Shown here piece after piece: positions 3,541-64,000 of a DNA stretch of 64,000 bases. A program made the translations under genes and the position numbers. Source of the DNA: Echinarachnius parma (taxonomy: Eukaryota > Echinodermata > Echinoidea > Clypeasteroida > Echinarachniidae); NCBI GenBank assembly GCA_037951105.1, contig JBAMJV010007773.1:1-64000 (forward strand), in the 5' to 3' direction. The stretch's first letter is position 1. Every line of letters begins with the position of its first letter. The notes under the pieces are model-generated. The model was not told where the DNA came from. It ran no database searches and saw only the letters and a program-made list of their open reading frames with translations.

Positions 3541-29127
<25,587 letters not shown>

Positions 29128-30780: not shown

Positions 30781-31321
30781 TTAAAGGGGTAGTTTAGTTT
30801 TGGTAGAGAGGGCGCTGCACATCACAATTTTTGTGTGAGGTAATGAAAAACTGAGTGTCGAATTTGAGAGAATGTGCAATTTTAATGGCAGAATAAACTT
30901 TATTTGGTCAAAATAGACCCAGAAACGGCTGAAATATCAATAAATATATCTGATCTTATAATTATTTGGGGCCCAAATAATTAGATAATTTTTTCAAAAA
31001 ATTTAAAAAATGCTTGCACTTTTTCAAAAAATTTCAAAAGCGTTTTTAAATAGTTATTGATGATCTCTCTATTTAATCATTATTTCAATAAAACATCACA
31101 TGCATAATTTTGTATGAAAAATGGTTGAAACCAATGCCTTTTTAGAAAGCACCCTCTTGTGTTTTAATGGCTCTTTTGAATGATAACAGGCTTTTTACTT
31201 AGTCGTTTGTAATTTTGTATACCTTTCGAGCATGGTAGAGTTATAACTATTAGTTTATAATGTTACTGTCCAGGTTTGGTTACTAAAGTTCAGCCTTACC
31301 AAAACTGTACTACCCCTTTAA
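30781..31321. mobile_element. TTAA MITE family B
   Basis: Left end TTAAAGGGGTAGTTTAGTTT, right end AACTGTACTACCCCTTTAA, with TTAA at both ends. A truncated copy precedes it (about 30460-30780) and a right-end fragment follows (31322-31460). Confidence 0.72.
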
Positions 31322-38096: not shown

Positions 38097-39291
38097 TTAA
38101 AGGGACAGTCCCTCTTTTACAAAACGTCTGAACAGTTTCCAGTTGACGGATGGGGATGAATGTAACACACACACACAAAAAATCAGCTCGAACAGCCCTA
38201 TCATTTGGATTCTACGAATGAAAAACGAATGCGTCCCTCCATCAGCCTATCGGTCAATAAAAGAGTTTAGCTGATTTAGCATAATATTACAACTACATTG
38301 TCCTTATTCTTGTAAAGGTATTGTGAAGCCGTCATTTGTAAAGGTATGTCACGGAAAATATCTCAAAAATGAAGAATATGTAATTACATGTAGTCAGTTT
38401 AAAGGAATAGTTGAGTTTTGGTAGAGGGGGCGCTAGACTACTTATTTTTTTTGTGAGGTAATGAAAAACTGAGTGTAAAATTTGAAAGAGCATAATATTT
38501 AAATAATAAAATCATCTTTGTTTGATCAAAATCGGTTCAGAGACGGCTGAAATATCCATAAATATAACAATTTGTAATAAACCTGGAGCCCCAGGTTTAT
38601 TAGAGAATTTTGAACCAGCCGTTAAAATTTTTTTTAAATGCTTCCTCTTTTCAAAAAGTTACAAAATATGTATTTAAATAGTTGTTGGTTATTTCTCTAT
38701 CTATTAACTATTTCAACAAAGCATCACATGCACAATATTTTATTCAAAATGGTTGAAACCGATGAGTGTTTAGAGAGCGCCCTCTTACGTTTTAACGGCT
38801 CTTTTTGAATGATAACATGATCTTTACTACGTCATTTGTAATTTTGTGTTCCTTTCTAGTTATAACTATTAGTTTGTAATGTAATGATGCAGGTTTTGGT
38901 TACTAAAATTCAGTTTCACCAAAATTGTTCTCTCCTTACCAGAACTCAACTATCCCTTTAAGCGAGGTTTGGTTATTTTGCCTAGTGTGTGGTCATGCTA
39001 TTCTTATTTGTGTGCGGGTCACGCAGCTAGCGCGGGTCACGTAGGGGTCACGCATAGCGTTGTGGTACTTCGTGGAATCCGCTTACGAACTTCCTCACTG
39101 GGTGAATATACGTATAATTCACAATTAAAATTGGACGACGGTTTATTAGTTTTAGGTCTATAACTCCATGAAAAAGAGATTCCAAGCCCTAATTTGTTCA
39201 GGCATGCTATTAAATGACATTTTCTTTAATATAAGACAATAACCTCGCAACTTTTGAAATTTGGCTTGCAAGAGAGGGAATTTCCCTTTAA
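38097..39291. mobile_element. TTAA element family C, interrupted by a family B MITE
   Basis: Outer ends TTAAAGGGACAGTCCCTC and TTTCCCTTTAA with TTAA boundaries; inverted homologue of 9680-10317. It is split at a TTAA by a family B element (38399-38961, ends TTAAAGGAATAGTTGAGTTT and CTCAACTATCCCTTTAA). Family C was therefore present before this family B insertion. Confidence 0.72.
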
Positions 39292-42900: not shown

Positions 42901-45900
42901 ATTTTTTAAATAGATGTAAAATTGCTGGATCGCAACAAAAATATTTGTGAATCAGACATGGGGAGGGGATAGCAATTTATTTCTTGATTCTCACCAAAGT
43001 AGTCGGTCCAGAAGAGAAAGTTCATCTCCATCGCGCGTTGGAGCGACAGGTCCAAGAGTTTGTTCGCAAATGGAGTCCCCGAAAGGTCGACGGAAAAGCA
43101 GATAGTCTTCTGAACCAGTCGTTTTAGACATTTGTGTGATACCATCTTTAGGAAAAGAAAAAAGAAAAGAGGCATATATAGTTAGTATTAGTATGGCAAC
43201 GATAGTTATGTTTACCGTATGCACGTTGACTCACAAAATCATGAAAACATGACCAATTATTACAATTATGTCACCCTGTGCATACCATCTTGAAGTAGCA
43301 TTTTAAATTCCAGATACTTCGTGTACAACAACAATATTGGAGTTTCATAGTAACCTTGGCCCTGTAACATAAAGATTCGCGATTCATTGTTCGATCAATC
43401 AATTGATCGTATGATTAATCGTGAATCTTTATAAAACGGGGACCTGACCAGAAGGTTCGTCATGAAAAAAGTAGGTCGTGTGTCCGATGCCCACCGGGTG
43501 CCAACCCCTGCAAGGTGTTCGTCCTTCACTGAACGCTCTCAACCCAGATCAACCCAGACCCTCGAATCGAAAGCGCCGCCAACAAGAGAGATCTGCTCAA
43601 CAGCAGTGATCTGCATAACATCACCGATCTACACCACGATGCAAAACATCAGTGATCGCTGTCAGACCTCTCTCGTTGTGCAGATTTCTCTCGTTAGTGG
43701 CGCGCTATATATTGTTGGTGGTAGGAGTTCAGCATGCGATCGAGGGACTCGATCCTAGTCTACACAAAGAGATGCAATCGATTCTAAAGTTGCAATTGAT
43801 TGAAAGTAAGAAAATATGCGCATTTGAACCAATCAGATTTACGCATTTAGTCACATGGTCTGACTTATGGTCAATAGACCGCTTCTGTAATGTATGCAAA
43901 TAATATGCGTATGACGTAAGACTCTCCGTTGGCAAGCTGAACAATAGTAACTAGGTCCGGCAAGCTAAGTTTGCCGGAGCTTGCCGGACATAGTTACTAT
44001 TGTTAAGCTTGCCAACGGGGAGTCTGACGTCCTACGCATAATATTTGCATACATTACAGAAGCGGTCTATTGGAACTGTAAAATCTATTGTAAATCCTTC
44101 TGCCCTATAATGCAGTAAAATCAATACCTTTTTTTAGGAATCTATTCCTCGGAATAACATGTGATGCTTAGTTGTTTATTTAATGTTTAGACAAATTACA
44201 CATTTTGTCCAATGCTGCTGGCTAATTTTGTTTCCTTAAAAAGAAAACACGTTGGATTAGTATCTTTTAAAAAATAAATAAGGATTAGGGTAGTTGAAGT
44301 GTAATACCTGCACTTTTGGTTCTGTTTCGTGTTGTGCTTTGCAGCTGATGCTGAGGTCAACTCTTCTGATGTCAATGTCAATTATCTGCTCTGGCGCCAT
44401 CATGCGGTGGCCCAAGCCAATCTCAGCACTGCCGATTCTCTGTAGCAGATATGATGGTAGATATGAGAAGGGTTACCCGGAACTGAAGTATATACATGTG
44501 TAATGTACTTTCAAGTTTTTAAATTTCATGTTGTTGTTTTTTTCAGCAGAACAGGTACAAATAATATATATTTTTGTAATTGAAATTTAATATTAAAGGG
44601 ACAGTTGAGTTTGGTATAGAGGGCGCTACAAAACAATTTTTTGTTGTGAAATAATGAAAAACTGAGGGTCAAATTCGAAGGAGCATACAATTTTAATAAC
44701 ATAATAAACTTTATTTGAACAAAATCGGTTCAGAAATGGCTGAAATATCCATAAACATTGATACTAATTGTGAGGCCCCACAATTATTCGATTATATTAT
44801 GAACCAGCCGTTAAACAAATGTTTAAAATGTTTCCTCTTTTCAAAAATTTATGATAGAGATTTTCAAATAGTTGTTGATTATCTCTCTTTCGAATCACTA
44901 TTTCAACAATACTTAACATGCAAAATATTTTATTTAAACTGGTTGATACCAATTAGTTTTTTAGCGAGCGCCCTCTTGAGTTTGAGGCGTTTTACTTAGT
45001 CATTTGTAATTTTGTATATTCATTTCGGGCATGGTGGAGTTATAAATATTAGTTTGTAATGTGATGGTGCAGGTTGTGATCACTAAAATTATGTTTGACC
45101 AAAACGGTACTCTCTTAAAGGGATCTAGTAACTTTGTTGACATGTGCAAAAAGTGATGAATGGTTGATGAAATGTATAGTGTTGTTATCTCATATGTCCA
45201 CAGGGTATTGTGTGAAAATTTCAAGTCAAATGGACATTGCATGGCCAAGTAACGAGCGAAAATGCAAAGTGATATTGGGTGATATTCACTAACTCACTGC
45301 ATTCACTTTGTACAGGGATGAAAAACTCGCCCGGAGTTTTTCTTATCTGAATACTTCATTCATACATATCTTTGTAACGAAAGGGAAATTTGAAAAACCG
45401 AAACCTGTCCCATGATTTTTTTGTTAATACGAATACAACAAGGTATAAGTTAACCGATAGAATTACAATTTTATTTTGAGGATTTGGACAATGTTACTAA
45501 GTCCCTTTAACCAAAACCCAACTATCCCGTTAACGAAGCATTCTACAAGTAATTTTACTGTACATAATTAAACATTAAGCAGAAAATAAAATATGTAGTA
45601 CAACAAAATAAAAATTCGGAAAGCCGAAATCTGTTTCATGCCCAATCGAGAACCGCTAGGGTTCTATAAAGTTTTTATGAATTTTGACAATGTAACTCTA
45701 TCCCTTTAATAGCGGGCCGGGTTAAGGGGTAAGAAATGGCTTACCTCTACTGTACTTGGCGTCGTACCGAGATCCGATGCCGTGATCATGAAAAGATGGA
45801 CACGCAAGATTGGCACCTTCTCCTGCGGGAGCGCCTGTGGCATGAATGGTACGCAGCCGATGCGTTTTCCCCGCACACCGCCGCGGTTTATGAGCGCCGT

Positions 45901-48900
45901 CAGCCAGCCCCACGAGAAGTGGTCGATGCGCAGCTCCATCACGTGATCTCTTATGGCGCACCATGGCGCGCCCTGTGAATCGTCACGCCTGTGTGCCATC
46001 AGATTTCGCTCTACGTCGGTATCGTCTGTGGAAATATCATATTGTATTGTTTATTGAAGACAGCGATTGACATTATTTTTTCATTGAAGAAATCATAGGT
46101 ATATTATAAATTGTACGCAGCCGATGCATTTTCCCCGCACATCGTCCCGGATCTATACATCAAAGGAATGTTAGACCTAAGGGAATGCTTTGAAGAAAAA
46201 CAATCCGCGGGGAATAAGAAAACGTATAATAATTCACCCGTTATAAATTGTGTGCACACTTGACTTTCAAAGCCGAACACTTCAATCATAATTATCTTTA
46301 TAAAAAGAAAAAAACCATCGGACAAAACATATTCCATGATTATTATTGGTAATACGTATATGAGGTATGTGACAACCACTATAGGTCTCTAAATAACTTT
46401 AGGGGGTTTTGACAATGTTATTTGATACCGTATACATGTACCTTTCTTGTATGTGCCACGGCCTGAGTAAAGCACCATTTCAACGTTCCCGGCGTCGTAG
46501 AATGAACCGGCATGGGGGATGATGATCGTGACGGGTTTCTTGAAGTGAAGTCCAGATGGAGAGCACTCGTATCCCAGGGATACGATCATTTCGTCGTCTC
46601 GATCGCAAACGTCTGGCGGATCGGTAAGAGCTGGGGTAGAAAGAAATGGAAGAGGGGTACATATAACATGTAGAAAGGGGAAGAACAACATAATAGGGTG
46701 ATTATACATAAATTAACATTTAATTTGATGAGGTGAGGGGGTGAACTAAGAAATCAGGTTACAATTAGGGTGCAAAACTGCTACAACAGCTGCTATAACA
46801 GTAGCACCCTTAAGGGTACATTTATGCACCTCAAAATGGGGTATCGGCACCATAACGGTGTAACCCTTCTATTCACCCCATATGATAGGGTGCAGACCCC
46901 ACTTTGTGGTGCAAAATTGCACCCTTAAATGAGCTGATATTGTTGTAGCGTTTTGCTGCAAATTTGAACCTTTATTTCTTAGTGTGTGAGACGGTCGGAT
47001 AGAACAGCTAGACATGCTAGACGAGGGTGCTTGACAACACAGGCATAATTGGAGACTTGAGCTTTTACCCGTGAATGAATTAGTGGCAGCACACTCTATG
47101 TATTTTGTATTCATTTTGTTTTTGTAAACGTATTTGTAGTACGTGCATCCCCCCGTAGCAGCTACGCCACTGCATAGCATGGATCATTGGGATCATGGGC
47201 GTCGATCTGTCATTGATACCGATTCATTAGGGGGATGATCTATTCATTCATCCCCCCCCCCTGATGAATAGGTATTACGTAAGTATCGACGCCCATGATT
47301 GGGATCATAGTATCATAAACTAATCACATTCCATCAGTCATTATTGAATTGATATTACGTACCCTTGATCGTGATGTACTGTTCGGATTCCAATGCTCCT
47401 TCGGGTACTACCATTTGTATCCCATATGCCTTCAGCTCCAGAGTACCGCCCGATGAACCGATACATGTTCCAACCATATCGTCAACGGCAGCTGCAACGT
47501 CGGGTTGGGTATTGCACTCGGCTTCTGAAGAAAACAAAAATACATTTAAAAAAAGTTTGTCGTGTAACATGTGAACAAATAATTATATTAATTTAGGCCA
47601 GTATCTATCATGTTTAACAGAACGTAGTGGCGTGGCTATGTACATTACACGAACAAGCGTGTGTGCGTGGGTGGTGGGGGTGAGATAGGAATGTAATAGA
47701 CGGGCCATCCCTAGGTGTATGACCCCCTCCCCAATTTAGTTCGTCAATGCTTTGCTACTGGTACAACGCATATCTTTAGCCATATTGGACATTTCAGTCT
47801 ACTCTTCGTTTAACAAAAGTACACGATATTTTGACCTGTTTGATTGGCATATAGACTCTGCACATTCTTCATAATTAGTTTCCTCACTGACTTATCATGA
47901 GCTGCTAGATGATTATAAATGTGTGCATACAATTTGTAGTAACTAATCCTGCCTTCATTTTAGAAGTATTTGCATTATTTTCGACAACATAACTTTAGGG
48001 GGTTATCTCCCTTTTATAATTACCAGTCACCATGGCCACGGTTTGACCCCTGGAGGACGATGCATCACAGTGCTCATCTCGTCGGTTATCCTGGTCTTCG
48101 GATGACGTGGGCGTCATGTGGGTAACCATGGTAAGGGATGTCTCTTTGCTCTCTGATTCTGTGGTCGTTGACCCGGATGTGGATGAAACGTCGGATTCCT
48201 CCCGAAACATAGTACGCAGCGGCGGCGACAAAGCCGTACTAGGCCTATCAGCGGATGGCAGATCCGATGAAGCATCGTCGGATGATGAAATACGGGATTT
48301 TGCCTTAGGCAAGTTTGGCATTGTGATATCATCCTATAAAAGAAGTTTTAGGAAATGGCATGATCATTGGGCCAAATGCATAGAAAGTAGCAAGTACTTA
48401 CAAGCTATATTTTTTCAAGCACTGACAATGCTTACATTCGTAAGCATACTCTTGTACTTGTGCTTAAAACCCTGTCCTTGCCTTACCGTTTAAATTGCTC
48501 ACGAGTTTTACAAAATAATCATTCCAGTTGTACGAACATCGCTCGATAGCATATAACACAGATGAGCTCACATTCTTATAGTGTTATTTGTTCAGACAAA
48601 TGTCTCGAACCCTTTTCATAGCTTGCGTCTTGTATTTTCTCAACTGGCAGAAAAACAAATTCCCAACATGAAAATAGAAAAGAAAAAACAACGTAATTAC
48701 AAAATATGTTAAATATGCCCTGGCACATACACGATGATAATCCTGTTGGTGAATGCAGTAGGAAATGAAAATATAATTAGCTTGATTAAAAAAAATAATA
48801 ACAATGTAAATTGTACAATATGGCGTCCTATTATAAACAAATAAAAAACAAACAAGTTCAAAGGGAGCATCATTATGATGAATGGGTTCCCAGTGTTGAT

Positions 48901-55925: not shown

Positions 55926-56591
55926 TACGAACAATTAAAAAAAATGATTAATAGGCTTGCATGGTGTTACAAATTTTACACTTCCGTCTTCCAACCACTA
56001 AATCCTACATCCTTATCCTACACCTAATCCTATACCTATCATTCTATCCTTAACAATATACTATGCAATCGACTTAGTATATATATACCTATACATACTA
56101 TGTACATTTGTTAATAGTTAGTAATTGCCGAGAGTAGTTTCTAAAATAATCAGCCTTTGAATCATATTCATAAGACTATTACTCAGGTGTCATTTATAGT
56201 TTTATAAATTATATAGAAAAACAAGGACATGATAACACTGTTTTCAATACAAATAATAGCAAAAATAGGAATTTTTCTGTTCACTATTATTTTTATTTTG
56301 TTTTTTGTAATAGTATTTTATTTTCTCTCAAACAAATTTACAACGTAAATTTACAATACAAATCATTCATATAAGTACAACAAACTAATTGTGTACAGCA
56401 TTACATATACATATACAATCTGTTCTTATACATATAATGATAATCATAGTGTTTGAGAAAAAAAGAAATCTATAGTAAAACAGAGAAACAATAGCGAACT
56501 AACAGAAGAAAGATAAAAAGAAAAAGAAAAAAAAAAAGGGGGGGGGGAGGCGGTAGTAAGAACTCTGTACATGGTGTCTCTGTGTCATACC

Positions 56592-59500
56592 CTAGTCAGA
56601 GAGTGTGTCCAATTTTCTATAATGAATTTGCAATGTTCCTCTCTGTTCAGCTATCTTTCTTTCTTCCTCTTTATTTTTCAATAATGTATCTTTAATATCT
56701 TTTATAGTTGGAGGATAATCTTTCGTTCTACTATTAACAAATATCATACTTTTTATCAACAATATAACATGATTTAATAATTGATCTTTTCCTACATTAC
56801 TAACCTTGATTCCTACATGGACCCCTTTCCAATCTATATTTATTAATTCTTCTAAATCAAACTCGTTACCGCAGTCTACCCAGATCATTCTTACTTTTTC
56901 ACAAAAGTAAAACAAATGTTCATATGTTTCCTGCATTTTATGACAAAAAGAGCATAAATTACTATCCCCCATATGAAAAGTAAACATGTGTTTCTTTGTA
57001 TAAATAAGATTGTATAGTAATTTAAATTGAAATTCCCTTAGTGAACTATTTAGCGTGGATTTTCGGGAGCGTACAAAAATATTTTCATTATCTTTTCCAA
57101 AGACATTATATAAGTGTTCTATGTTGCGAACTGCAAAAGACTTCTCTAATCTTAAATTTAACAAATGATCATATATATATTTTGAAGTTATATCACACAA
57201 TGAATAATCTTTTCCACTCAATCGAAACTCCAAATTCAGTGCAGTATCTTCCATCACATTATAATCTCTACTTAACAATTGTTTCCATATAAATGGTATA
57301 TTTTCAAAAATCTGTTTCACTATGTCAATTTCTGACCTATCTAATCCTAGTCTCATAAATTCCTTGACAGATTTTATTCTTCCTTTGCTATCGACTATAT
57401 GATGTATTTTATAAACATTTTTCAAAAATAATGTTTCATTATAATAAATTTGTCCATTAATTCGAATATATCTATTATTAAAAACAATTTGATTCCTGCT
57501 TCCAGTTTCTTTTAACAAAAAATCTTTTGAACCTATCCAAGCTTCTAACATTTCCCTGTAAAAACCCGGAAGTGACAAATTCAATAAATCAAATGAAACA
57601 TTACAAAAGAAAACCAACAAACCTCCTGCTTGTCTAGTCAAGAATTTAAAAACTCTTTTCCATCCCATCATTGATTCCCCCTCAAAAAGTCTCTTAATCC
57701 ACATTATTCTCTGTGTCCGAATAAATAATTGAAAATCAATCATTTTTAGACCCCCTTTTTCGTAATTCAAAAAAGTAACTTCCCGTTTAATTTTATCTTT
57801 TCCATGCCACAAAAAATCAAATGTTAATCTATTCAAATCTTCTATTACACCTTGCGGAATTGGAGTGAGTGAAGATACAAATATTAATTTAGAAATCACA
57901 AACGTCTTTATCAATTGAATTTTTCCCATCAGGGTCAAGTCCCGCTGTTTCCACCATATTAATAAATGTTTAATTTTACTTAAAATTTCTTTATAATTCA
58001 TTCTTTCTCGAACTTCAGGGTCCATAGAAAAATATACACCTAATATTGTAATCATCCCAACTTTTGTACCAAAAGGAGTTACAATTTCTTTTCCATGAAG
58101 AGGGCCTAATAACAAAACATATGTTTTGTCTCGATTAATTTGTAATCCCGATATTATAGCAAAAGTTTCAAATTTTTCCTTTAATTTTATCAACGAATCT
58201 TTATCTTTTACAAAAAGCGTCATATCGTCTGCGTATAATACTTGTTTAATATGTGCATTTCCCAAAATAAACCCTGAAATTTCATTGTCGGTCCTAATCG
58301 AGCGTGCTAAAGTTTCTATACATAATATAAATAAATAGGGTGATAAGGGGTCTCCCTGCCTTACCCCTTTCATAATATTAAAATAACCAGTCGATACATT
58401 GCCGTTAAATACACAACTCTGAGCGCCCTTGTAGAGTGTACGAACCCATTTACAAAATGAAGTCCCAAAACCAAACGTCTTTAACACATTTTGCAAAAAA
58501 TCATGAGAAACAGTATCAAAAGCCTTTTTAAAGTCAATGGCTAATAAAAACCCTGGTATATTATTTGTTTTAGTATAGAAAATCATATCGTCTATCAATC
58601 TTATAGCCTCACCGATATTTCTCCCTTTTAAATATCCTACCTGATCTATACTAATAAGTTCCCCTAATACTTTTTTAATCCGAACAGACAATATCTTAGC
58701 TAAAATTTTGTAATCTACATTTAATAATGATATAGGCCTGTAATTTGTTATTTGTAAGGGGTCTTTATCTTCCTTTTGAATCAATATTATAATAGCTTGT
58801 TTTTGTGAAGAAGATAATTCTTCTTTAACAAATGCTTCATTTAAAGCCCTTACCACAATATCACCAATAACAGGCCAAAATAATTCATAAAACTCTACAC
58901 TAAGACCATCGTTTCCGGGTGACTTATTACCTTTCATTTCTTTTAAAACCGCTATACATTCCCCTTGAGTTATATTACCTTCGCAAATTTCCTTTGATTC
59001 TAAACCTAATTTTGGCAAACCTTTAAAAAATAAACTTTCATTAAATAATTCTACATCAACAACAAATTTGGAATATAATCCAGCATAAAACCTTTGTATT
59101 TCCCGAATAATAATATCCATATCAAAACTTATTTTTCCTCCATCTACTAATAATTTACTTATAATTGTCTTCTTTTTATTTGCTTCCATTAGTTGCACAA
59201 AATATTTAGTATTTTGTTCCCCTCTCTCATAAAATGATGCTCGAGATCGAACTTTCAAACCCTCATTAATATATTCATAAAAAAATTTTAACTCCATTCT
59301 TTTATTTTCCAACAAATCAACCTTTTCCTTTTCTACCTTTTCTATCAATTCTTTTTCAATTACACTTATATCATTTTCAAGATTTTGAACTTTTTCTTTC
59401 CTTTTTCTAGATTTTTCTTTAGAAAATTTCCTAATAAAATTGCTAATTTTCATTTTCAAAAAATCCCAATACACTCTTACATCTTTAATTTCTTTTTCAT

Positions 59501-60374
59501 ATATATTTCTTAATCTCCCTATTTCCACTTCCATCTGTCTAATAAATTCCCCATCTCCACATAAACTATTATTGAACTTCCAGTAACTACCTTTACCTTT
59601 AATTGAAAAATTAGGCAAATTATAAAATTGTAACTGAACAGCAAAATGATCTGGTGCAATTGATGGTATTATATTACATTTTAAGACAATTTGTTCTAAA
59701 CTATATGAAATAAAAAAATAATCTAAACGACTTTGGACAAAGGGGTTAATTTGTTTAAACGTATATTGTTTTTTTAAACCATTTTTCCCCCGCCAAATAT
59801 CTAATAAAGTCCATTTATCCTTATAATTATCAAAGTGTTTAAGAAATATCGACTGTACCTCTTTTTTATTACTTCCCAAATAATCTAAATCAACATTATA
59901 AATCATATTAAAATCCCCTCCCATAATTATTGGGTTACCATTACCATTTATTGTATCCAAACTGTTATCAATACTATTCAAAAACTCAATCTGCTCCATT
60001 GATTTCCCTCTTACTGGAAAATACGCGTTTATTAATATTAATCTTAATCCCTGAATAATACAGTCTAAAATAATAAATCTCCCTGCATTATCATTGCGCA
60101 CTTGAAGAACCTGGATATCTAATTTAGAATCTATCAATACCGCCACCCCTCTACTGTGATTTGTCCTATGGCTATAATAAATTGTTCCATCCCACAAAGA
60201 ACCCCATACATCTTCAACATCATTAGTGCTGTAAGTCTCCTGCAAAAAAGCTACTTCTACTCGTTTATCTCGTAACCAAAATAAAATACCACCCCTTTTT
60301 GTTCTTTCCCTTATTCCCTTAACATTCAAGGATACAAAATTACAATTAAACGATATATTATCAAAGTCCGTCAT
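56592..60374 (-). CDS. L1/Tx1-type LINE ORF2: endonuclease and reverse transcriptase, 1260 aa
   Basis: Uninterrupted ORF of the usual length for L1 ORF2. N-terminal AP-endonuclease: SLNVKGIRE, FLQETYST, IMGGDFN, RLDYFF, PDHFAV. Reverse transcriptase about residues 470-760: NYRPISLLNVDYKILAKIL, DQVGYLKGRNI, AIDFKKAFDTVSHDFL, GVRQGDPLSPYLFILC and catalytic YADD (LYADDMTLF). C-terminal CxxC-H-C zinc-knuckle-like sequence (LCSFCHKMQETYEHLFYFC). AT-rich codon use unlike the GC-richer Death domain exons. No ORF1 was found upstream, so the copy may be ORF1-less or have a decayed ORF1. Clade (Tx1 or L1) is inferred from motifs. Confidence 0.9.
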   Translation of the reverse strand: MTDFDNISFNCNFVSLNVKGIRERTKRGGILFWLRDKRVEVAFLQETYSTNDVEDVWGSLWDGTIYYSHRTNHSRGVAVLIDSKLDIQVLQVRNDNAGRFIILDCIIQGLRLILINAYFPVRGKSMEQIEFLNSIDNSLDTINGNGNPIIMGGDFNMIYNVDLDYLGSNKKEVQSIFLKHFDNYKDKWTLLDIWRGKNGLKKQYTFKQINPFVQSRLDYFFISYSLEQIVLKCNIIPSIAPDHFAVQLQFYNLPNFSIKGKGSYWKFNNSLCGDGEFIRQMEVEIGRLRNIYEKEIKDVRVYWDFLKMKISNFIRKFSKEKSRKRKEKVQNLENDISVIEKELIEKVEKEKVDLLENKRMELKFFYEYINEGLKVRSRASFYERGEQNTKYFVQLMEANKKKTIISKLLVDGGKISFDMDIIIREIQRFYAGLYSKFVVDVELFNESLFFKGLPKLGLESKEICEGNITQGECIAVLKEMKGNKSPGNDGLSVEFYELFWPVIGDIVVRALNEAFVKEELSSSQKQAIIILIQKEDKDPLQITNYRPISLLNVDYKILAKILSVRIKKVLGELISIDQVGYLKGRNIGEAIRLIDDMIFYTKTNNIPGFLLAIDFKKAFDTVSHDFLQNVLKTFGFGTSFCKWVRTLYKGAQSCVFNGNVSTGYFNIMKGVRQGDPLSPYLFILCIETLARSIRTDNEISGFILGNAHIKQVLYADDMTLFVKDKDSLIKLKEKFETFAIISGLQINRDKTYVLLLGPLHGKEIVTPFGTKVGMITILGVYFSMDPEVRERMNYKEILSKIKHLLIWWKQRDLTLMGKIQLIKTFVISKLIFVSSLTPIPQGVIEDLNRLTFDFLWHGKDKIKREVTFLNYEKGGLKMIDFQLFIRTQRIMWIKRLFEGESMMGWKRVFKFLTRQAGGLLVFFCNVSFDLLNLSLPGFYREMLEAWIGSKDFLLKETGSRNQIVFNNRYIRINGQIYYNETLFLKNVYKIHHIVDSKGRIKSVKEFMRLGLDRSEIDIVKQIFENIPFIWKQLLSRDYNVMEDTALNLEFRLSGKDYSLCDITSKYIYDHLLNLRLEKSFAVRNIEHLYNVFGKDNENIFVRSRKSTLNSSLREFQFKLLYNLIYTKKHMFTFHMGDSNLCSFCHKMQETYEHLFYFCEKVRMIWVDCGNEFDLEELINIDWKGVHVGIKVSNVGKDQLLNHVILLIKSMIFVNSRTKDYPPTIKDIKDTLLKNKEEERKIAEQRGTLQIHYRKLDTLSD

Positions 60375-62339
60375 TATATATCAATATCAATACATATAAA
60401 CTTTATCATCATTTCTATTTAAATATAACCTGAGTAATGAGAAGGGGACACACACTTCTTTAGAGTAACCCTCATAATTCTGACTGTTACCACAAAAATA
60501 TGAAAAAAGAGGAACTACCGCCATACCCCTTGGAAAAGAAATTAAAAAAGTTAAACAGTCACAAGAATAACAATACATAGAAGAAAAAAGAAGAACAAAA
60601 CAAATAAATCGAATCGAACCACCAAGTGCGAAAAAAGAATAATAATAAACTACCGTCCGAATGAGCCGCCACCCATCCCCTTCACTACACAAAAATAAGA
60701 ATAAACAATAGACAAAACACGTCACTACTGAATTTTGCCTTTCTTTAACATCCTTCAGTCTTGACCGAGATCAGACTGCACCAATCTATAGGGGCTTATA
60801 ATAGGTAGCCAAACCCCAAATGCCTCGGGATTGCGAGGGTAATCACTGCATTTCCAGCTAGAAGGAACCCTTTCGTCAAGCACTGAACCCTTTTCTCCAT
60901 CACTTCGCATTCATTATACTCCAAACAAAAGTATTTACCAATTCCATGTATTTCTTTTAAAATAACTCATACGAATCGCTTTTGTTTCAATACCCCCTTA
61001 TATCGGAAGCCCAAAACACTATCTAAAAAGAAATCTACTTTTGCTTTTTTTTAAGCATTCTATTAAAACAAAAACCGGAAAGGAATCAAAAAGAAAAAAA
61101 ACCCTCAATCCTGAATAACCAATAACAGACATGATGTCTCAACAAGTAGACAACCTTCTACGACTGTAAACAAAATTACATAATCAAAAGAGAAACCAAA
61201 TACATTGTCTCATAAAAAAAAAAAAAAAAAAAAAAACAATGACGTGTTTACACTTGATAATACTTCATATCCCCTTGTATGAGACTTCTATCCGGCGTTC
61301 AATTACCCGCCGACTTTAACCATTTCCATTAGATTTCCCGCCTTTTACACAAAATCAAAAAGAAATTCCTTGTCTCTTCAAGCATTCAATGACAATACTC
61401 CATTTAAGGGATTTTATAAGTACGACCCTCTATCCCATTTTGTGAGAGCATTAAATGACATTCAATTACTCTCGTATACCCTCTGTTACATCTATATAAA
61501 TAAAAACAACTTTACAATACATTGGACTTTCGAATAGTCTCATAGAAAGAAGTACAAAACACTCGCTATTCTTGTATTTCATCACTTATAAGAATGTCAA
61601 AACTCCAATGTGACAACAACAATTCAGACTCAAGTAATACATTTTTTCAAAAAATCAAAAAGAAACAATGAACAAAAGTTTCTCCTTTTTCTTCTTTTTC
61701 CTTCATTTTTTTCCCTTTTTCAATTACAAAAACCCTTTCCGAAATCCCTCAATTCTGGCCTAGTAGCAAACTGGCTTGACATGTGTCAAAAAACACCAAC
61801 AATTAAAACGGCTACTCCACACTTCTAATACCTCTCTAAAAAAAATAAGCATGACTAAGCCAGCTCTTTCATCAATTTCGAAACCCTTTTTAGAGATCAC
61901 TCAGTCATGACGTGGTGTCACTAGATTGGCTTTTCAAACATTCAATAAAAGGATTCCCCTAAAGAGACTTCATCAGATAATAGACCGCCTCCGCAATGCA
62001 TGCAAACAATACGCGTATGACGTAATACTCCCCGCTGGCAAGCCCAACAATGGCAACTAGGTCCGGCAAGCTAGATTACCCTGAGCTTGCCGGACCCAGT
62101 CACCACTGTCAAGCCCGCCAACGGGGACCCCGACGTCAACGCATACCACCTACACACACTGCAGAAGCGGTCTATTGACTTGTTTAAGTACCGTTCTTTA
62201 TCCCATTTAAAAAAAAACAATTTACAATACATTAAGATGCTGAACCGTCTCACTAAACCCGCTATTCTTCTAATACATCACTTATAAGAATGTCACAATT
62301 CAGAGTCATTTTTAACTAATACCTAAGGAACAATAAAGG
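60375..62339 (-). repeat. Degenerate 5' region between L1-type ORF and monomer array
   Basis: No ORF above 112 codons. 61480-61610 and 62180-62300 share ACAATTTACAATACATT-, CGCTATTCTT- and CATCACTTATAAGAATGTCA-type sequence, and 61850-61970 resembles a monomer. A poly-A run lies at 61208-61235. Contains the hairpin at 61981-62174. Confidence 0.6.
61981..62174. mobile_element. Hairpin MITE copy with one-directional T-to-C changes
   Basis: 194 bases with the same TAGACCGC...GCGGTCTA ends as 43875-44069. Base-by-base comparison shows 24 T-to-C and no C-to-T on the plus strand, in both arms; the loop is also changed. The arms no longer pair perfectly: mismatches read C-A on the plus strand and G-U on the minus strand. 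Confidence 0.85.
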
Positions 62340-64000
62340 AACCTTTGTATCCAAAACCTTTTTCACAAACTCAGAATGAGTGAGCTCTCTTATCCCTTTT
62401 AAAACCTTTTTACAAGATTATTCAGTCCAGACGCGGTAGTCAACTGGCTTTAAAAAAATGCTAATCAATTAAAGAAAATATTCCACAAGGTCTTTACCAA
62501 CCAGAATCTTTTCTCTCCATTTCCACCTGCACGTTATTTTGACCAAACACCCTGACATATCTTTAACTAATCCCTAAGGAACAGTGAAGGAACATTTTTA
62601 TCCAGAACCTTTTTCACAAACTCAGTCTTGACCCAAATAACAGATTGGCTTTTCATCGCCAATAATAGTGTCTAAACACCAATATAAAACAAGTTCATAC
62701 AAACTCATATAATGCCTCTCTAAAAACAAAAACAAAAACCTGAATAAGTGAGCTCTTTTTATCCCTTTTAAAACCTTTTTGCGCGATTTTTTAGTCCAGA
62801 TGCGGTATTCAACTGGCTTTTAAAACATGCCAATCAATTAAAGAAAATATTCCACAAGGTCTTTACCAACCAGAATCTTTTCTCTCCATTTCCACCTGCA
62901 CGTTATTCTGACCAAACACCCTGACATATCTTTAACTAATCCCTAAGGAACAGTGAAGGAACATTTTTATCCAGAACCTTTTTCACAAACTCAGTCTTGA
63001 CCCAAATAACAGATTGGCTTTTCATCGCCAATAATAGTGTCTAAACACCGATATAAAACAAGTTCATACAAACTCATATAATGCCTCTCTAAAAACAAAA
63101 ACCTAAATAAGTGAGCTCTTTTATCCCTTTTAAAACCTTTTTGCGAGATTTTTCAGTCCAGATGCGGTAGTCAACTGGCTTTAAAAAAAAAAAAAAAAAA
63201 AAGCCAATCAATTAAAGAAAAGATTTCACAAGGTTTTTACCAACCAGAATCTTTTCTCTCCATTTCCACCTGCACGTTATTTTGACCAAACACCATGACA
63301 TATCTTTAACTAATCCCTAAGGAACAATGAAGGAACATGTTTATCCAGAACCTTTTTCACAAACTCAGTTCTGACCCAAATAACAGATTGGCTTTTCATC
63401 GCCAATAATAGTGTCTAAACACCAATATAAAACAAGTTCATACAAACTCATATAATGCCTCTCTGAAAACAAAAACCTAAATAAGTGAGCTCTTTGTATC
63501 CCTTTTAAAACCTTTTTGCGCGATTTTTTAGTCCAGATGCGGTATTCAACTGGCTTTTAAAACATGCCAATCAATTAAAGAAAAGATTCCACAAGGTGTA
63601 TACCAACCAAAATCTTTTCTCTCCATTTCCACCTGCACGTTATTTTAACCAAACACCATGGCATATCTTTAACTAATCCCGAATTAGGAACAGTGAAAGA
63701 ACATATTTATCCAAAACCTTTTTCACAAACTCAGTCCTGACCCAAATAACAGATTGGCTTTTCATCGCCAATAATAGTGTCTAAACACCGATATAAAACA
63801 AGTTCATACAAACTCATATAATGCCTCTCTAAAAACAAAAACCTAAATAAGTGAGCTCTTTTATCCCTTTTAAAACCTTTTTGCGAGATTTTTCAGTCCA
63901 GATGCGGTAGTCAACTGGCTTTAAAAAAAAAAAAAAAAAAAGCCAATCAATTAAAGAAAAGATTTCACAAGGTTTTTACCAACCAGAATCTTTTCTCTCC
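62340..64000 (-). repeat. Tandem array, ~370-bp monomers, about 4.5 copies
   Basis: CCAGAATCTTTTCTCTCC recurs at 62501, 62870, 63244, 63607 (one change) and 63983: periods 369, 374, 363 and 376. Each monomer also has GTGAGCTCTTTTATCCC, CAGTCCAGATGCGGTA and AACAGATTGGCTTTTCATCG; an A-run of variable length (up to about 20) alternates. Diverged relatives continue toward 60700 (for example about 61850-61970). Confidence 0.9.

What the first reader, a model, noticed from the sequence alone, without database searches (positions are those of the whole stretch)
61981..62174. Hairpin MITE in the L1-type 5' region carries an A-to-I editing-like mutation pattern
Aligned by eye with the well-paired copy at 43875-44069, this copy has 24 T-to-C differences and no C-to-T on the plus strand. 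They lie in both arms of the palindrome. A germline mutation process such as CpG deamination would give C-to-T/G-to-A. In the L1 sense (minus) strand all 24 are A-to-G, and the arm mismatches become G-U wobbles, as left by ADAR on double-stranded RNA. The hairpin lies between the monomer array and ORF2, so it would be in the L1 transcript. Inference: the hairpin RNA was edited, then reverse-transcribed and inserted, leaving an editing fossil in DNA. The L1 ORF is intact, which fits editing confined to the hairpin.
Basis: partly seen in the sequence, partly recalled or inferred. Interest (0 to 1): 0.86.

Follow-up and report, generated by a model that had tools for sequence, protein, structure and literature searches.

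The report
RNA-editing fossil inherited by a retrotransposon
A small hairpin element inside a jumping gene carries the mark of having been edited as RNA (A read as G, on one strand only, in the double-stranded part) and then copied back into DNA and passed on to many copies, so a normally short-lived RNA edit appears to have become part of a genome.

Summary
Polarised on the four palindrome arms, this hairpin changed A>G at 21 of 48 ancestral A, with T>C 0, G>A 0, C>T 2. All 25 wobble-type mismatches between its arms are G.U on the minus strand; flanks show no comparable excess. Genome searches changed the picture: the pattern is not peculiar to this copy. All 40 scored copies carry G at all 24 sites and lie in the same L1-like context; a genome-wide pattern finds 43 places. 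The 23 MITE copies fetched outside L1 lack it. A putative ORF1 and an 85-bp terminal duplication place the array and hairpin between ORF1 and ORF2, not in the 5' region. Best reading: a MITE that inserted as DNA into an L1-like element was ADAR-hyperedited in the transcript, reverse-transcribed, and the edited version founded a family. No ADAR gene, RNA data or unedited L1 progenitor was seen.

The parts
61979..62178 (-). MITE-derived hairpin with the A-to-G pattern on the L1-sense (minus) strand
   Evidence: 40 of 40 scored genomic copies carry G at all 24 sites
43874..44070 (.). Unedited-type copy of the same MITE, outside L1
   Evidence: near-identical copies elsewhere
6831..6842 (.). Empty counterpart of the MITE insertion at 43874 in a duplicated segment (junction at 6835/6836)
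56592..60380 (-). ORF2 of the L1-like element, 1262 aa open frame with endonuclease and reverse transcriptase domains
   Evidence: 92% identical to P0001
60381..61978 (-). Spacer between hairpin and ORF2, partly monomer-like
62375..64000 (-). Monomer array (about 369-bp unit); continues to about C7761:64409 beyond the window
56206..56290 (.). 3'-side copy of the 85-bp terminal duplication; partner at C7761:67338-67421, 97.6% identical

Best explanation
A palindromic MITE inserted as DNA (target A-AT-T) into an L1-like retrotransposon between its ORF1 and ORF2. In the L1 sense transcript the MITE folded into a stem of about 95 bp and was hyperedited by an ADAR, which turned about 44% of its adenosines, in both arms, into inosine. 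The edited transcript was reverse-transcribed, so inosines were written as G. That edited copy, or the last of a few edited generations, founded the present family, and the edits are now inherited DNA in about 40 near-identical copies. Shown: strand, direction, polarity and hairpin confinement of the changes; their fixation in the L1 family; their absence from the 23 free MITEs fetched; insertion of the MITE family as DNA; position between two open frames of one duplication-bounded element. Inferred: that the enzyme was an ADAR, that the edited RNA was the L1 transcript, and whether it took one round or several.
For: Polarised changes A>G 21 of 48 A, T>C 0 of 48 T, G>A 0. 25 vs 0 one-sided wobble mismatches. 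Minus-strand fold kept, plus-strand fold lost. Monomers and flanks symmetric, ORF2 not biased. Same 24 changes in 40 of 40 scored copies, all in L1 context, two of them 5'-truncated 77 and 30 nt upstream of the hairpin as target-primed reverse transcription leaves them. Free MITEs unedited. The hairpin is bounded by ORF2, a putative ORF1 and an 85-bp terminal duplication. Edited A somewhat scarcer near the stem ends, p 0.048 with bins chosen after seeing the data. Edited share is like the nearly 50% that a review reports for an inverted-repeat region of avian retroviruses (PMC12925331, passages).
Against: Neighbour preferences not significant. No unedited or partly edited L1 copy and no empty L1 site was found, so the order of events is not observed. 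The search for an ADAR gene did not complete and there are no RNA data. No target duplication was found for the two truncated copies. Later changes among the copies (5 distinct A>G of 17 distinct changes) give no clear sign of continued editing, although the stem is still in every transcript.
Confidence: 0.82

Rival explanations
1. Selection to keep the stem in the sense RNA: ordinary mutations accumulated and only those that keep pairing (A>G at A:U, C>T at G:C, both giving G.U) survived.
For: Both kinds keep the minus-strand stem, which is nearly intact.
Against: C>T should then be at least as common: 21 A>G vs 2 C>T, p 0.0002 at equal rates. No similar pattern in the free MITEs. Flanking L1 sequence shows no long, separate history.
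Confidence: 0.06
2. A DNA-level, strand-specific process (for example deamination of adenine in an extruded hairpin or in a DNA:RNA hybrid) changed the hairpin in one L1 copy, which then spread.
For: Deamination of deoxyadenosine in DNA:RNA hybrids by ADARs is reported in a review (PMC12925331, passages).
Against: Editing of the cDNA or template strand would appear as T>C on the sense strand, of which polarised changes show none; a hybrid would not confine changes to the palindrome.
Confidence: 0.06
3. A diverged MITE subfamily already had this sequence and inserted into L1 later, so the changes have nothing to do with L1.
For: The hairpin keeps the MITE insertion flank pattern A-AT...AT-T.
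Against: No such MITE outside L1 among the 40 scored matches or the 23 fetched free MITEs; a strand-specific A>G pattern would still need an RNA stage; the strand coincides with L1 sense.
Confidence: 0.04
4. Sequencing or assembly artefact at a hairpin.
For: Hairpins are hard to sequence (general knowledge).
Against: The same 194 letters, or with one or two differences, recur in 40 places with distinct flanks.
Confidence: 0.02

Closest known systems
ADAR hyperediting of repeat-derived dsRNA in animals (PMC9989829, passages; PMC3197674, passages)
   Same: Clustered A-to-G in a stem formed by young repeats, one RNA strand, only A changed
   Different: There the edits are in RNA; here they are in genomic DNA and inherited by a family
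A-to-G hypermutated avian retroviruses, Rous-associated and avian leukosis virus (as told in PMC12925331, passages; original papers not read)
   Same: Nearly 50% of A changed in an inverted-repeat region, passed on by reverse transcription
   Different: Retroviruses; here a non-LTR element, a captured MITE, and spread through many genomic copies
APOBEC G-to-A editing of retrotransposons (PMC3880073, passages)
   Same: A deaminase mark left in retroelement DNA
   Different: Other base, acts on cDNA, not tied to a stem; G>A is 0 here
Mtv61 provirus of mouse with excess A>G (PMC12548423, passages)
   Same: A possible ADAR mark in inherited DNA
   Different: Weaker bias over a long stretch, and its authors report that the context does not fit ADAR

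Membership tests
ADAR hyperediting mark | Clustered A>G on one RNA strand, other changes rare | tested here: met
   A>G 21 of 25 polarised changes
ADAR hyperediting mark | Confined to double-stranded RNA | tested here: met
   Stem on the same strand; flanks symmetric, some of these alignments weak
ADAR hyperediting mark | 5' neighbour U/A favoured, G disfavoured | tested here: inconclusive
   U/A 17 of 24 edited vs 16 of 29 unedited, p 0.27; G p 0.44
ADAR hyperediting mark | ADAR gene in the genome | not tested
   Search not answered
ADAR hyperediting mark | Editing seen in RNA of this element | not testable with these tools
   No RNA reads available
L1-like non-LTR retrotransposon | ORF2 with endonuclease and reverse transcriptase | tested here: met
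   PF03372, PF00078
L1-like non-LTR retrotransposon | ORF1 upstream on the same strand | tested here: inconclusive
   379-aa frame at the right place, but no family above its cut-off
L1-like non-LTR retrotransposon | Target-site duplication | tested here: met
   85 bp, 97.6%; none found for two truncated copies
L1-like non-LTR retrotransposon | Placement in the L1 clade by a tree | not tested
MITE | Short, non-coding, terminal inverted repeats, many near-identical copies | tested here: met
MITE | Target duplication on insertion | tested here: met
   AT, filled against empty site; A-AT...AT-T in 15 of 15 fetched copies
Tc1/mariner-type MITE | TA target duplication | tested here: not met
   The empty site reads A-AT-T

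The most novel reading that the evidence does not exclude
The edits were not only preserved but favoured: a captured perfect hairpin exposes the transcript to dsRNA sensing or blocks reverse transcription, and hard-wiring ADAR edits as G.U pairs let the element live with it, so that the family that spread is the edited one. ADAR would then be a source of heritable, useful variation for a retrotransposon. The failure to find unedited or empty-site L1 copies fits this but does not show it.
Probability: 0.2. Interest if true: 0.88.

Novelty: new variant of a known kind. Interest (0 to 1): 0.76.

Why it matters
A-to-I editing is usually taken to leave the genome unchanged. Here its pattern stands in DNA, in about 40 copies, with an internal control (flanks of the same transcript) and an external one (the same MITE elsewhere). 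It suggests a genome-only screen: inverted repeats inside retroelements whose mismatches are G.U on the sense strand only. That would make testable how often RNA editing feeds back into germline DNA. In ten full-text searches of open PMC papers, judged from listings, abstract openings and passages of eight papers, I saw no report of an ADAR-edited hairpin fixed in a LINE family; most subscription papers and all preprints were not held.

Tried and rejected
Rejected: selection for stem pairing alone (21 A>G vs 2 C>T); old neutral divergence (flanks and ORF2 show no matching bias); the idea that this one copy was edited; the 5'-region placement. The 'intact ORF' argument was dropped because A>G never makes a stop from a sense codon. 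In one search the count of A:U pairs that became G.U (20) looks only at pairs kept in the fold, so I rest on the fold-free arm comparison instead.

Led nowhere: pattern scans for the MITE in viral contigs (21 and 3 stretches) and in prokaryote genomes (0); the best BLAST matches to the 24 stretches were only 17-27 nt. ORF2 relatives in viral contigs: none. ORF2 homologues gave no organism. ORF1 against solved structures gave only weak matches, E 0.29 or worse. The species is unknown to me; ZU5 and a sub-threshold Death-domain match only suggest an animal. mis-extracted four copies (L046, L048, L053, L054); its counts are not used, replace them.

Full report
Observation. The palindromic element at 61981-62174 was aligned with the copy at 43875-44069: 24 T>C and 0 C>T on the plus strand. 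On the minus strand, which is the sense strand of the L1-like element, this is A>G at 24 of 54 A, with G>A 0, C>T 2, T>C 3 and nine transversions in sum. The minus-strand RNA still folds into a nearly complete stem (-153.9 kcal/mol, 24 G.U pairs) while the plus strand does not (-93.8); the other copy folds about alike on both strands.

Polarity. A palindrome brings its own outgroup: each stem position is present four times (two arms in two copies). Where at least three agree, the hairpin in L1 changed A>G at 13 of 26 and 8 of 22 ancestral A in its two arms, with T>C 0, G>A 0, C>T 2, C>G 1 and C>A 1; the other copy has 3 changes, none A>G; 14 of 103 columns were set aside as gapped or ambiguous. 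Against strand symmetry, 21 A>G vs 0 T>C has p 1e-6; against selection for pairing, which would equally allow C>T, 21 vs 2 has p 0.0002. Between its own arms 25 mismatches are G.U on the minus strand and 0 on the plus strand; 17 other inverted repeats of the window (of 57 found, 25 listed, several overlapping) sum to 31 and 27.

Confinement. In five monomers of the adjacent array (one partial), changes from the majority are A>G 5, T>C 5, G>A 8, C>T 9. Three comparisons of hairpin flanks with related segments give A>G 1, 9, 4 against T>C 0, 7, 3; two of these alignments are weak. In ORF2, 26 window-lineage amino-acid changes are compatible with A>G in 3, G>A in 3, T>C in 4 and C>T in 1 case. 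Within the stem, edited A are scarcer near the ends (19 of 34 inner vs 5 of 19 outer A, p 0.048, bins chosen after seeing the data). ADAR neighbour preferences point the expected way but are not significant with 24 sites.

The carrier. ORF2 (56592-60380, minus) is open over 1262 aa with endonuclease and reverse transcriptase domains and is 92% identical to P0001, an unnamed protein. Past the window, in the same contig C7761, an 85-bp direct repeat (56206-56290 and 67338-67421, 97.6%) bounds the element, and a 379-aa open frame lies at 65728-66867 on the same strand. I call it ORF1 from its position; no Pfam family reached its cut-off and its six homologues are unnamed. So the monomer array (to about 64409) and the hairpin lie between ORF1 and ORF2 of an element of about 11 kb.

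The MITE. The copy at 43874 has an empty counterpart in a duplicated segment at 6835/6836: GGTCA-AT-TGG against GGTCAAT...ATTGG, i.e. insertion as DNA with an AT duplication. A genome search with it had 1771 first-look candidates; the 40 scored match at 99-100%. The 15 fetched differ from it by at most one base, have A-AT...AT-T flanks in 15 of 15, and match no L1 piece but the hairpin itself. These were found with an unedited query and so lean towards unedited copies. Eight more (L083-L090), found by other patterns, also lack L1 sequence. Against the 23 together, A>G to the L1 hairpin is 20-28 in 22 and 10 in one shorter alignment; no other substitution type exceeds 4; two alignments have 15 and 19 gap columns.

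The family. In the 1.2-Gb assembly the L1 hairpin matched 40 times at 99-100% (40 of 1185 candidates scored). All 40 have G at all 24 sites; 21 are identical over 194 nt (the window's own included), 15 differ by one base, 4 by two. All 40 have L1 sequence beside the hairpin: the upstream flank over at least 150 nt in 38, the downstream flank over at least 300 nt in 39, and the exceptions (L028, L048, L062) have the other flank in full. Two, at C9597 (L028) and C12084 (L048), are 5'-truncated 77 and 30 nt upstream of the hairpin. A pattern of the edited left arm with up to 3 mismatches finds 43 places, 38 exact, and includes all 40; so the scored 40 are nearly the whole set at that sensitivity. 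The number of independent insertions is smaller: L030/L031 and L029/L040 are identical over all 3194 fetched bases, and C7536 carries both hairpins about as far apart as the window, so it is probably a second assembly of the same locus.

No precursor. An unedited left end next to the L1 flank (up to 3 mismatches) gave 50 matches: one is an edited L1 copy, the other 49 differ from the L1 in the flank letters; I read 7 of those 49 in full and none has L1 sequence. An unedited right end next to the L1 flank gave one match, a free MITE. The joined empty site gave none. Precursors more diverged than these limits would be missed. Distinct later changes among the 40 copies are A>G 5, T>C 4 and 8 others, at most a weak hint of continued editing.

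Interpretation. A MITE inserted as DNA into an L1-like element, the sense transcript was edited in the stem, and an edited transcript was reverse-transcribed and founded the family. Direction, strand, confinement, polarity and fixation are shown; ADAR as the enzyme, the L1 transcript as substrate and the number of rounds are inferred. A review tells of nearly 50% of A changed to G in an inverted-repeat region of avian retroviruses (PMC12925331, passages), and a survey of 22 species finds that animal editing mainly targets dsRNA of young repeats (PMC9989829, passages). Reverse transcription of edited RNA thus has a retroviral precedent; inheritance by a LINE family through a captured MITE was not seen in my searches.

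Limits. The genome search was answered 6 times and otherwise unreachable, so the ADAR gene, older L1 relatives and the full MITE family were not examined. Three of the 43 pattern places (C1070, C10338, C3683) were not inspected.

Noticed in passing
62375-64000 and C7761 64001-67421 (L055): The monomer array, of the kind one expects at a promoter, sits in a stretch of about 5.3 kb between the putative ORF1 and ORF2; how ORF2 is expressed is unclear.
   Followed up: partly
   Followed up: partly
L064 and L066, hairpin positions 68 and 152; L059, L060 and L065, position 88: Further A>G changes shared by small groups of L1 copies: perhaps later editing, perhaps ordinary subfamily changes.
   Followed up: no
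5919-7912 and 43000-44986: Duplicated segments, 80-94% alike by pieces; ZU5-type frames occur near both, at 8947-9228 and 46389-46712.
   Followed up: no
44593-44983: A repeat with several further matches in the window, e.g. at 7506-7912, 10362-10675, 38399-38792, 30781-31164 and 51417-51058.
   Followed up: no
14113-17028, minus strand: A second open frame with endonuclease and reverse transcriptase domains, 971 aa, from another non-LTR element.
   Followed up: no
G000:C4630:67532-67727 and 67764-67959: Two MITE copies in opposite orientation 36 bases apart; if transcribed, a further dsRNA source.
   Followed up: no
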